DNA from: Thermococcus piezophilus
GTDB taxonomy: Archaea; Methanobacteriota_B; Thermococci; Thermococcales; Thermococcaceae
NCBI RefSeq assembly: GCF_001647085.1
Contig: NZ_CP015520.1
Coordinates: 868,001 to 932,000 of the forward strand
DNA length: 64,000 nt
Direction of reading: 5' to 3'
Part shown: one piece after another, positions 19,698 through 51,598 of the stretch
Numbering within the stretch: the stretch's first letter is position 1
Layout of the letters: each line of letters begins with the position of its first letter
Made by a program: the position numbers and the translations under genes
The notes under the pieces: generated by a model
Told to the model about the DNA's origin: nothing
Seen by the model: the letters and a program-made list of their open reading frames with translations, nothing else
Database searches by the model: none

Positions 19698-19723
19698 CTG
19701 CTCTCAGTAAGGTTAGGCTGGAT

Positions 19724-19877
19724 GGGGGCGTGGTGTAGCTTGGTCCATCATCGCGGGCTCCAGAGGTATGAGGACTTGCGGGTTTGCTGATTGGGGATGA
19801 GCCTTTGGAGCTCTGACCCGGAGAAACCCGCGGACGTCATCCGATCCGACCGTTTTCAAATCCCCGCGCCCCCACCA
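19724..19877 (+). tRNA. tRNA-Trp (CCA) with an intron containing a box C/D guide RNA
   Basis: The acceptor GGGGGCG pairs with CGCCCCC, then discriminator A and an encoded CCA end. T8, A14, G15, G18G19, A21 and T33 are in place. The anticodon stem GCGGG/CCCGC encloses anticodon CCA at 19760-19762. A 62-base intron (19764-19825) sits between positions 37 and 38, as in other euryarchaeal tRNA-Trp genes. The T loop TTCAAAT is normal. The 5' half of the T stem does not pair with CCCCG, and the variable region plus 5' T stem is 23 rather than about 10 bases. Confidence 0.85.
19764..19825 (+). ncRNA. Intronic box C/D guide RNA of tRNA-Trp
   Basis: Boxes in order: C near 19768-19774 (ATGAGGA), D' CTGA at 19787-19790, C' near 19794-19800 (GGGATGA), D CTGA at 19813-19816. 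The fifth base before D' (G19782) pairs with C39 in the stretch GCGGGTTT/AAACCCGC. The fifth base before D (G19808) pairs with C34 of the anticodon in TGGAGC/GCTCCA. These are the known 2'-O-methylation targets of the archaeal tRNA-Trp intron RNA, so the pre-tRNA guides its own modification. Confidence 0.85.
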
Positions 19878-19900
19878 TTCTCTCAAACTTCGCGAAGTCG

Positions 19901-20034
19901 AAGTTTATCAAAAAGTTCTGACTGTTTTAACAGGCCAGATTAAAGTTGCATCCCCAAGAGGATGTTTTATATTCTTTAGAATTTCACAACACACCTACAT
20001 TCTGAGTTCCCCCAATCGACGCCCTTCGGGCGTC
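19901..20034 (+). repeat. tRNA-proximal repeat, copy A
   Basis: A 134-base unit starting about 24 bases after the tRNA-Trp 3' end. Its first 50 or so bases (aagtttatcaaaaagttctg and on to ttaaagttgcat) and its terminal palindrome GACGCCCTTCGGGCGTC (20018-20034) recur in inverted orientation after tRNA-Ala at 51370-51506. The middle differs. No reading frame. The rest of the 19878-20189 spacer holds a 12-base palindrome (19888-19899) and an inverted repeat at 20060-20102. Confidence 0.6.
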
Positions 20035-20059
20035 AAAAAGAAAAGCAGACTCAAGATTC

Positions 20060-20102
20060 AATGCGCTCCTTACACTGAAATCATACTTCATGTGAGCGCA
20101 TT
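20060..20102. repeat. Inverted repeat with 9-bp arms
   Basis: AATGCGCTC at 20060-20068 and GAGCGCATT at 20094-20102 are perfect complements around a 25-base loop. It could form a hairpin in RNA or be a regulator site. It lies between copy A of the repeat and the dead EamA gene. Confidence 0.5.
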
Positions 20103-20189
20103 GGGGGTGCACACTGGTAATCGGTCAATTTATCGAGCAGTCACAACTTTGGTCAACTTCGCAAAGGTTGCCGCTAATTCAAAGCTTGT

Positions 20190-21016
20190 TCACTTCTTTC
20201 CGAGCAGTATGCCCCCAACTATCATCGCCAGTCCCACAACCGTTGACGGGGCTATGCTCCCGCCTACGACCTCCGATATGAATACCAACGAGAGGAATGG
20301 CACTAAATAAGCCAGGCTCGATGCGAAAGCCACGTCGCTTTCAACGGCTTTATACCAGAGGAGAAACGTTATCCCCATCTTAAAGAGGCCGACGTAAACG
20401 GCTCCGGCGAGAGCCTTTGCCTCTGATATCTCAATGCTCCCGCTGAGAAAAAACTATGACTGAACTGTAGGCAAAGCCGAAGATGAAGTTCCAGAACATC
20501 TTCTCCACCAAAAGTCTCTCGTCGTGGAGGTTGAGAATCCAGTAGAGAGCCCATATTATCGCGCTCCCGAAGCCGAAGAGAACGCCGAGAGGATCGGTAA
20601 AGTCCAAGTCGGCTAGGTTTCCTTTCGTAGCTCCACGAGAGCACCGAGGAAGCCGAGGAGCAGGTCGACCAGTGCCCTAAAGCTCGGCTTCTTTCCCAGA
20701 ATGGGAACTGAGAGGAGGACGAGCATTAGGGGCTAGGTGTAGTTTAAAGCCTGCGCTTCCTGAGATGGTAGGCGTTCATATGCTGAGAAGAGGACAGTGT
20801 GGTAGAGGAAAGGGTTTATCAGGCCAAGATAAGCTGAGCGGGGGTTCTCTCCCCTAAGCGAGAAGTCCCTGGAGCAGAGAACCCCGAAGAGAATTAGCGA
20901 CGTTAGGGAAGCGTAGAATAGTAGCTGGAGGGGGTTAGGTATCTAAGCGAGAGCTTGAATGCAGAGGCAACCGTTGACCACAGCAGAATCGCTCCAACCG
21001 CGTGCTTTTTGGACAT
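20190..21016 (-). pseudogene. EamA/DMT family transporter, degraded
   Basis: ATG 21016 opens a recognisable EamA N-terminus (AVGAILLWSTVASAFKLSLR), and the C-terminus is intact from about 20378 (FISEVVGG, then VGLAMIVGGILLGKK). Between them are several frameshifts (near 20960, 20780, 20630 and 20460) and an in-frame TAG at 20733-20735. There the homologous residue is expected to be Trp (TGG to TAG). The restored product would be a ten-helix drug/metabolite exporter of about 275 residues. A substitution-type stop besides the indels indicates a true pseudogene. Confidence 0.8.
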
Positions 21017-23185: not shown

Positions 23186-23274
23186 CCTCAGACTGGAACG
23201 GCTTCCACATCAAATTCGGTAGCTACCCTGTTGCCATCATCGGTCGTTTTTCCTTTGTTCCATACCTTAAAAAG

Positions 23275-51109: not shown

Positions 51110-51369
51110 GCTTTTACCGACGTCCTTTGGCATGTAAAAGTTAAAAGGGCTTCGATATGTCCATATCTTTACCTTTCTTGTGTTCATTATAATCTCTTCC
51201 AAGCTGGCAAACTTTGTAGAACCTTTATCAAACTTCGCGGAGTCTTTTGGAAAGGCTCGCGAAAAGCGGAGAGGGCGAAGGCATTTTTAATGTGTATTCA
51301 CTTGTCGAGTGCTCTTTGAGAAGGATTCCAACCAAAGAGGCAATTCAACACTGAGTTCAAACATTTTTA
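51110..51369. other. Spacer upstream of the malic enzyme relic
   Basis: No gene seen. A partial relative of the tRNA-linked sequence (caaacttcgcggagtctttt, 51227-51246) and an AT-rich stretch near 51280-51300 are present. Confidence 0.35.
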
Positions 51370-51506
51370 GACGCCCGAAGGGCGTCGACTGAGAAGAACT
51401 CTACTTTAGGACAGGAATCTACTGCAAGATACAGTTTTGCCATTCTATTAAATGCGACTTTAACATCTGCCCGTTAGAACAGTCAGAAACTTTTGATGAA
51501 ACTTGC
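51370..51506 (-). repeat. tRNA-proximal repeat, copy B
   Basis: Starts about 15 bases after the 3' end of tRNA-Ala, in the same direction as that tRNA. The opening (caagtttcatcaaaagttt, then ctgactgtt, then ttaaagtcgcat) matches copy A at 19901. The unit ends with the identical palindrome GACGCCCTTCGGGCGTC (51370-51386). Total 137 bases versus 134. No reading frame. Confidence 0.6.
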
Positions 51507-51520
51507 GCCAGCAAAGTTGT

Positions 51521-51598
51521 GGTGGACCGGGCGGGATTTGAACCCGCGGCCTCCGCCTTGCGAGGGCGGCGCTCGTACCAGGCTGAGCTACCGGCCCA
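51521..51598 (-). tRNA. tRNA-Ala (CGC)
   Basis: The acceptor GGGCCGG pairs with CCGGTCC and includes the G3-U70 wobble pair that identifies alanine tRNAs. D-loop AGCCTGGTA, anticodon stem CCGCC/GGCGG with loop CTCGCAA (anticodon CGC), T arm GCGGGTTCAAATCCCGC, discriminator A and an encoded CCA. No intron. The promoter TATA (tttttaaaccc, minus strand) is near 51627-51637. Confidence 0.95.

What the first reader, a model, noticed from the sequence alone, without database searches (positions are those of the whole stretch)
19901..20034. A repeat of about 135 bases placed 3' of two unrelated tRNA genes
Copy A follows tRNA-Trp, copy B (51370-51506) follows tRNA-Ala in the direction of that tRNA. 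Both share about 50 opening bases and the identical 17-base terminal palindrome, with diverged middles. Conserved ends and tRNA linkage suggest a small mobile element, an integration remnant, or a family of tRNA-linked RNAs ending in a hairpin.
Basis: seen in the sequence. Interest (0 to 1): 0.58.

Follow-up and report, generated by a model that had tools for sequence, protein, structure and literature searches.

The report
tRNA-anchored palindromic repeats in Thermococcus
The two repeats are halves of members of a widespread family of roughly 290-base foldback DNA elements that sit just behind tRNA genes in Thermococcus archaea, and many of the places where these chromosomes were flipped during evolution fall on such sites, which may explain a published puzzle about how these genomes rearrange.

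Summary
Each copy is the tRNA-side half of a ~290-bp foldback element with end hairpins and a central, not terminal, palindrome. A model of the centre gives 26 elements at 17 loci in this genome and hits in 58 of 61 genomes of the genus, but in none of 9 listed g3 genomes, probably Pyrococcus. In three genomes 13/17, 12/18 and 14/20 loci lie within 320 bp behind a tRNA 3' end (random 0.6-0.7%), at quantised distances; none has a tRNA 5' end that near. Five stand in tandem between convergent tRNAs. Sites persist between species while contents change; against the nearest relative seen, element A's left half is replaced up to the palindrome. Of detectable synteny junctions, 8/10, 3/9 and 6/11 fall at these sites, including both published tRNA-tRNA inversions and one whose interval is element A. 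Only site neighbourhoods were fetched, and elements are not yet separated from tRNAs as the cause (p = 0.074). Best reading: DNA recombination hot spots; the causal role is inferred. RNA function unsupported. New variant of intergenic palindromic repeats.

The parts
19724..19877 (+). tRNA-Trp gene with intron (CCA at 19875-19877)
   Evidence: read from sequence; matching tRNA-Trp stretches in relatives
19884..20170 (+). element A, whole foldback unit (the finding covers its tRNA-side half)
   Evidence: MFE z -5.9; not in the training set of model R1
19885..19906 (+). left end hairpin of element A (AAACTTCG...CGAAGTTT)
   Evidence: sequence; same motif at other copies
20018..20034 (.). central palindrome of element A; similarity to G028 resumes at its first base
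20154..20170 (-). right end hairpin of element A
   Evidence: sequence
51520..51597 (-). tRNA-Ala(cgc)
51207..51519 (-). element B, whole unit (far end approximate)
   Evidence: fold not exceptional on its own, z -1.5; its centre was one of the 19 training sequences of R1
51353..51401 (.). centre of element B: arms GAGTTC/GAACTC around the palindrome 51370-51386

Best explanation
A family of non-coding foldback DNA elements (~290 bp: end hairpin, outer arm, variable body, inner arm, central GC-rich 7-3-7 palindrome, then the mirror plan) is anchored at tRNA 3' ends across Thermococcus. SHOWN: the family, tRNA anchoring at quantised distance, tandem arrays, kept sites with changed contents, a half-element replacement meeting at the palindrome, and many detectable synteny junctions at these sites. 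INFERRED: the dispersed, mutually similar, hairpin-prone copies supply the sequence match (and perhaps the break, through hairpin or cruciform cleavage) for recombination between different tRNA loci, giving inversions when copies face each other, loss or movement of segments when in line, and half-element exchange by conversion. tRNA 3' flanks may be favoured because breaks there are tolerated and integrases already act there.
For: Anchoring: 13/17, 12/18, 14/20 loci against 0.57-0.69% at random; no tRNA 5' end within 320 bp (four loci have one at 334-354 bp); tRNA-end-to-centre distance 123-131 in 15, 145-162 in 17, 169-198 in 6 and 258 in 1 of 39 cases. Array of five between convergent tRNA-Leu(tag) and tRNA-Val(cac). 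Copies similar enough to pair: 26 of 26, 23 of 24 and 26 of 26 elements have a paralogue in their genome at E <= 1e-5, e.g. 85% over 351 bp, inverted. Junctions at sites: 8 of 10 (G014-G021), 3 of 9 (G000-G014), 6 of 11 (G000-G021). They include the Leu/Thr and Leu/Gly inversions of Cossu et al. 2017, the first of which they could not obtain with tRNA x tRNA substrates, and a 19-20 kb Gly(ccc)/Trp inversion whose interval in this genome, 887880-888197, is element A. Half-replacement: G028 matches the query at 1-180 (90%) and 319-491 (92-100%) but not between; 319 is the first base of the palindrome. Spread: 58 of 61 in the genus, none in 9 listed g3 genomes, in line with a published difference in shuffling mode between Thermococcus and Pyrococcus (passages).
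Against: Only site neighbourhoods (about a fifth of each genome) were fetched, so only junctions there could be placed finely. tRNAs themselves could be the cause: per comparison, sites with an R1 element in the first genome were broken in 2/14, 3/14, 5/17 and tRNAs without one in 1/15, 2/15, 3/13, no real difference. Counting an element present in any of the three genomes gives 9 of 26 against 0 of 9 (hand-assigned; Fisher two-sided p = 0.074). Of the 8 G014-G021 site junctions, 3 have no R1 element in G014. One G000-G021 junction (131644-133273) lies in fetched sequence without an R1 element in this genome. Some tRNA units appear flipped in place, which one crossover between elements does not explain. 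The arm-complementarity test was negative. No enzyme is identified.
Confidence: 0.55

Rival explanations
1. tRNA genes are the hot spots, through integrases of the SSV/pTN3 type or integration of mobile elements; the repeats are passengers that accumulate where such events happen.
For: Int-pTN3 recombines tRNA-Leu copies in vitro; an integrase gene (PF16795) starts inside a tRNA-Gly half beside two elements at 314 kb; 7 of the 8 G014-G021 site junctions touch a tRNA; broken fractions with and without an element are alike within single comparisons.
Against: Published failure of Leu x Thr recombination; one junction (G014 964262-966103) holds an element 2.7 kb from the nearest tRNA 3' end; 0 of 9 tRNA loci without an element in any of three genomes are broken, though p = 0.074.
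Confidence: 0.25
2. Decayed miniature inverted-repeat elements (MITE-like), once spread by a transposase with a taste for tRNA 3' flanks, now vertically inherited and reshuffled.
For: Inverted ends, many non-coding copies, subfamilies, tandem units, copies away from tRNAs.
Against: No clean empty/filled pair with target duplication was established; 14 of 17 loci of this genome have an element at the matching place in G014 or G021 (by hand); one element used as query found no plasmid or phage record.
Confidence: 0.3
3. Structured RNA: tRNA 3' trailer or terminator, or an sRNA co-transcribed with the tRNA.
For: Fixed position behind tRNAs; strong folding (mean z -3.69 for 76 elements, -0.29 for 40 random window pieces).
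Against: 27, 29 and 25 of 45 tRNAs have no R1 element within 320 bp; loci without tRNA; no G-U strand bias; no Rfam match in the element; the words 'repeat' and 'palindrom' do not occur in the main text of the T. kodakarensis transcriptome paper.
Confidence: 0.12

Closest known systems
Intergenic palindromic repeats of bacteria (REP/BIME, ERIC; recalled)
   Same: Dispersed, non-coding, palindromic, intergenic, in tandem clusters
   Different: Anchored at set distances behind tRNAs, ~290 bp with layered arms, archaeal, at inversion breakpoints
MITEs, e.g. Sulfolobus SM elements (recalled)
   Same: Size, inverted ends, many copies
   Different: No transposase partner or target duplication shown; positions largely shared between species
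Int-pTN3-driven inversions in Thermococcus (Cossu et al. 2017, PMC5495485; passages, section 6 and the first part of section 16 seen)
   Same: Tolerance of short similar segments; breakpoints at tRNA pairs in the T. onnurineus / T. sp. 4557 comparison
   Different: In the text seen, no repeat is assigned to the tRNA 3' flanks and the Leu/Thr endpoint is left to other paralogues or earlier events

Membership tests
Rfam families | covariance-model match over the element | tested here: not met
   for 19700-20250 only C/D box families in the tRNA intron at 19753-19818, below gathering score; at gathering score only tRNA and sR22 in the window and tRNA in ten other loci
MITE | terminal inverted repeats | tested here: met
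   read in copies
MITE | target-site duplication / precise empty site | tested here: inconclusive
   orthologous loci show changed contents, no clean empty site
MITE | autonomous partner transposase with the same ends | not tested
   -
REP/BIME | short conserved palindromic unit in intergenic clusters | tested here: met
REP/BIME | REP sequence and RAYT (TnpA-REP) partner | not tested
Integron attC site | R/L boxes and an integron integrase with cassettes | not tested
   considered by eye only
tRNA-linked structured RNA | RNA-type wobble pairs in the tRNA-sense strand | tested here: not met
   15 G-T versus 21 A-C in 58 oriented elements
tRNA-linked structured RNA | transcription of the element | not testable with these tools
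   no RNA reads held

The most novel reading that the evidence does not exclude
A dedicated chromosome-shuffling platform: the central palindrome and layered arms are recognised as folded DNA by a recombinase or hairpin nuclease that exchanges half-elements and flips chromosome segments between tRNA loci, so that Thermococcus carries a built-in inversion system that Pyrococcus lacks.
Probability: 0.13. Interest if true: 0.9.

Novelty: new variant of a known kind. Interest (0 to 1): 0.68.

Why it matters
Thermococcus chromosomes are scrambled although insertion sequences are few, and published work could not obtain inversion between the different tRNAs found at one pair of breakpoints. A repeat family placed there, in a genus with genetics (T. 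kodakarensis), offers the missing shared sequence in directly testable form. It might also explain why shuffling differs between Thermococcus and Pyrococcus. Nothing in Rfam covers the element tested.

Tried and rejected
Matched-versus-unmatched arm complementarity over 75 elements gave no excess (mean 22.7 matched, 24.2 unmatched; 8276 of 10000 permutations reached the observed value). Mixed orientation and homology between left and right ends confound it, but it is no support. A first fold z-score run timed out with no output and was redone with 25 shuffles. The generic tip-plus-arm scan found 4 hits in the window, 2 of them the same place in element B, against 4-6 in five mononucleotide shuffles: the signature alone is not significant without the conserved tip. 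The scan required paired arms, so it shows the variety of arms, not proof of pairing. The genome-contig scan returned 14 loci, all MAG contigs; one (L083) entered model R1, the rest were not used. Plasmid and phage searches with one element found nothing. Literature searches listed no paper that, by title and abstract start, describes such elements; most subscription papers are not held.

Bias and dropped rows: model R1 was built from 19 central hairpins, 12 from tRNA-Trp loci of relatives, 6 from this genome (element B among them), 1 from L083, so hits at tRNA-Trp and at those six are favoured. Of I left out the partial match at 1173921 (E 0.007) and 1194365 (E 2.1); sites 422588 and 821950 look element-like but were not counted. 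I accepted elements up to E about 1 in G000, G014 and G021, while single hits at E 0.18, 0.33 and 0.99 in three of seven g3 genomes were not followed up. Counts include both strands and are capped. In one search the 100% match of 732181 and 732359 is overlap of the cut pieces. The z-scores include the central hairpin by which elements were chosen. In the 26-versus-9 comparison locus 1705 was dropped as undetermined, and one of the nine (1185 kb) is undetermined against G021. Of 30 tRNA-Trp loci, one (L066) was never displayed.

Full report
WHAT WAS CLAIMED. Two ~135-base copies behind tRNA-Trp and tRNA-Ala were said to share an opening and a terminal palindrome. Both are present and the 17-base palindrome is far beyond chance in the window (2 against 0.01 expected).

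WHAT IS THERE. The window is 868001-932000 of a 1.93-Mb chromosome. Past the finding's end the sequence shows that the palindrome is the middle of a unit about 290 bp long. Element A runs from a hairpin just after the tRNA-Trp CCA (19884) to an inverted copy of that end near 20170; element B is built alike on the minus strand. Other copies show the same plan: end hairpin (AAACTTYGC..GCRAAGTTT), TGATCAAAG, outer arm, variable body, inner arm (GTTTCA, GGGTTTA, GAGTTC, GGGTTC, TGTTCAC and so on) with its complement at the mirrored place, central 7-3-7 palindrome (the last scan required paired arms). A test of full-arm matching was negative, so I do not claim covariation.

HOW MANY. A covariance model of the 49-base centre (R1) gives 26 elements at 17 loci in this genome (six elements were in its training set, element A was not). 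In the class it hits 70 of 115 genomes, 58 of the 61 in the window's genus, and none of the 9 listed genomes of genus g3. A more sensitive run on seven g3 genomes gave nothing in four and one hit each at E 0.18, 0.33 and 0.99 in three. Contig lengths suggest g3 is Pyrococcus (names recalled).

tRNA ANCHORING. With Rfam tRNAs plus tRNA-Trp (45 per genome), 13 of 17, 12 of 18 and 14 of 20 loci in G000, G014 and G021 have a tRNA 3' end within 320 bp of a centre (two more in G014 at 472 and 495 bp); random points do so 0.57-0.69% of the time. No locus has a tRNA 5' end within 320 bp; four have one at 334-354 bp. The tRNA-end-to-centre distance is 123-131 bp in 15, 145-162 in 17, 169-198 in 6 and 258 in 1 of 39. 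Eighteen, 16 and 20 of 45 tRNAs are followed by an element. Among the best-scoring element of 30 genomes, 18 lie behind a tRNA within about 520 bp (14 by ARAGORN, 4 at tRNA-Trp by the coordinates; some of these four loci were in the training set). The locus at 314 kb, counted as tRNA-free, follows a tRNA-Gly half in which an archaeal integrase gene (PF16795) starts.

ARRAYS. Five elements in tandem lie between convergent tRNA-Leu(tag) and tRNA-Val(cac) at 420-421.6 kb; pairs occur at 129.7, 314, 732, 963 and 1045 kb.

TURNOVER. At orthologous sites the flanks are kept but the element usually differs in type, judged by eye (Met, Ala-cgc, Val-gac, the tRNA-free 1155- and 1519-kb sites); exceptions are Arg-tct, nearly identical in G000 and G014, and Ser-gga, same type. 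Against G028, the closest match seen, element A's right half is 92% identical or more while the left half has no match; similarity resumes at query position 319, window 20018, the first base of the palindrome, which itself differs at a few positions. G028 also has an insertion in the right end hairpin. Behind tRNA-Trp in 29 displayed loci the flank varies from no element to two (by eye).

REARRANGEMENT. Cossu et al. 2017 (PMC5495485; passages, section 6 and the first part of section 16) reported two inversions (139/143 and 102/74 kb) between T. onnurineus and T. sp. 4557 with endpoints at tRNA-Leu/tRNA-Thr and tRNA-Leu/tRNA-Gly, did not obtain Leu x Thr inversion in vitro, and suggested other paralogues or earlier overlapping inversions. 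G014 and G021 have the recalled lengths of these genomes, and two inversions of similar size are there: about 142/135 kb between G014 288.5 kb (element behind Leu-caa) and 146.6 kb (Pro/Thr; G021 has an element there between convergent Pro and Thr), and about 74/99 kb between G014 1147.8 kb (element behind Gly-tcc) and 1221.6 kb (element behind Leu-tag). A further 19-20 kb inversion between G000 and G021 joins Gly(ccc) and Trp; in this genome one interval is 887880-888197, element A itself. In these three the tRNAs point outward in G014 or G000, so the breaks lie at 3' flanks.

COUNTS. Chain junctions at element or tRNA sites (read by hand): 8 of 10 for G014-G021 (5 with an R1 element in G014, 3 at tRNAs without one there; 2 in gaps not fully fetched); 3 of 9 for G000-G014 (one more begins at tRNA-His, 5 in unfetched gaps; one search also marks Leu-tag/Val-cac as broken, which the chaining bridged); 6 of 11 for G000-G021 (Leu-gag, Gly-tcc with a 23-kb interval, Leu-tag/Val-cac, Arg-ccg, Gly-ccc, Trp; one in a fetched 1.6-kb gap without an R1 element here, though G014 and G021 have one at the matching place; 4 unresolved). 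Site-wise, broken/determined: with element 2/14, 3/14, 5/17; tRNA without R1 element 1/15, 2/15, 3/13, so presence in one genome alone does not separate the classes. Counting a locus as carrying an element when any of the three genomes has one, 9 of 26 are broken against 0 of 9 (Fisher two-sided p = 0.074; hand classification). The comparisons are not independent, and only site neighbourhoods were fetched.

RNA OR DNA. Elements fold well (mean z -3.69, 63 of 76 below -2; random window pieces -0.29, 4 of 40 below -2), B not exceptionally (-1.5). Stem mismatches in 58 oriented elements: 15 G-T, 21 A-C (p = 0.41), no sign of selection on the tRNA-sense RNA.

MECHANISM. Most likely these are DNA-level recombination platforms. 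Similar, hairpin-prone copies at many tRNA 3' flanks let broken or paused DNA pair with another copy; inverted pairs flip the segment between, conversion swaps halves or whole contents. Shown: placement, architecture, swaps, junctions. Inferred: that the elements cause the events, and by which enzymes. In-place flips of tRNA units (Trp between G000 and G014; Pro-tgg between G000 and G021) need more than one step and remain unexplained.

NOVELTY. No Rfam family covers element A and no paper listed in my searches (titles and abstract starts) describes them. They are a new variant of intergenic palindromic repeats, set apart by tRNA anchoring and by lying at chromosome breakpoints. On rechecking I lowered confidence and interest slightly, because the within-comparison contrast between tRNAs with and without elements is flat.

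Noticed in passing
window 19836-19857: The only tRNA-Trp matched in this genome carries an extra stretch and altered T-stem compared with G028, G014, G021 and the minus-strand loci printed, so the T-arm as read cannot pair; assembly error or a truly odd gene.
   Followed up: partly
L022:2187-3053: Archaeal integrase gene (PF16795) starting inside a tRNA-Gly(tcc) 3' half next to two elements; perhaps one end of an integrated element reaching to about 333 kb.
   Followed up: partly
L050, L022:1520-1600, L192: End hairpins of some elements carry further nested hairpins in their loops, similar ones at different loci and species.
   Followed up: no
G000 76.0-76.5 kb vs G014 886.2-886.7 kb: Arg-tct element region nearly identical between species whose flanks are 82-92% identical; suggests recent transfer or conversion.
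   Followed up: no
G000 1155341, G014 60254, G021 927843: A tRNA-free element site upstream of genes that include one I read as ribosomal protein L3 (by eye) is kept in all three genomes, with different elements in it.
   Followed up: partly
window 23186-23244: C/D box RNA sR22 by Rfam.
   Followed up: no
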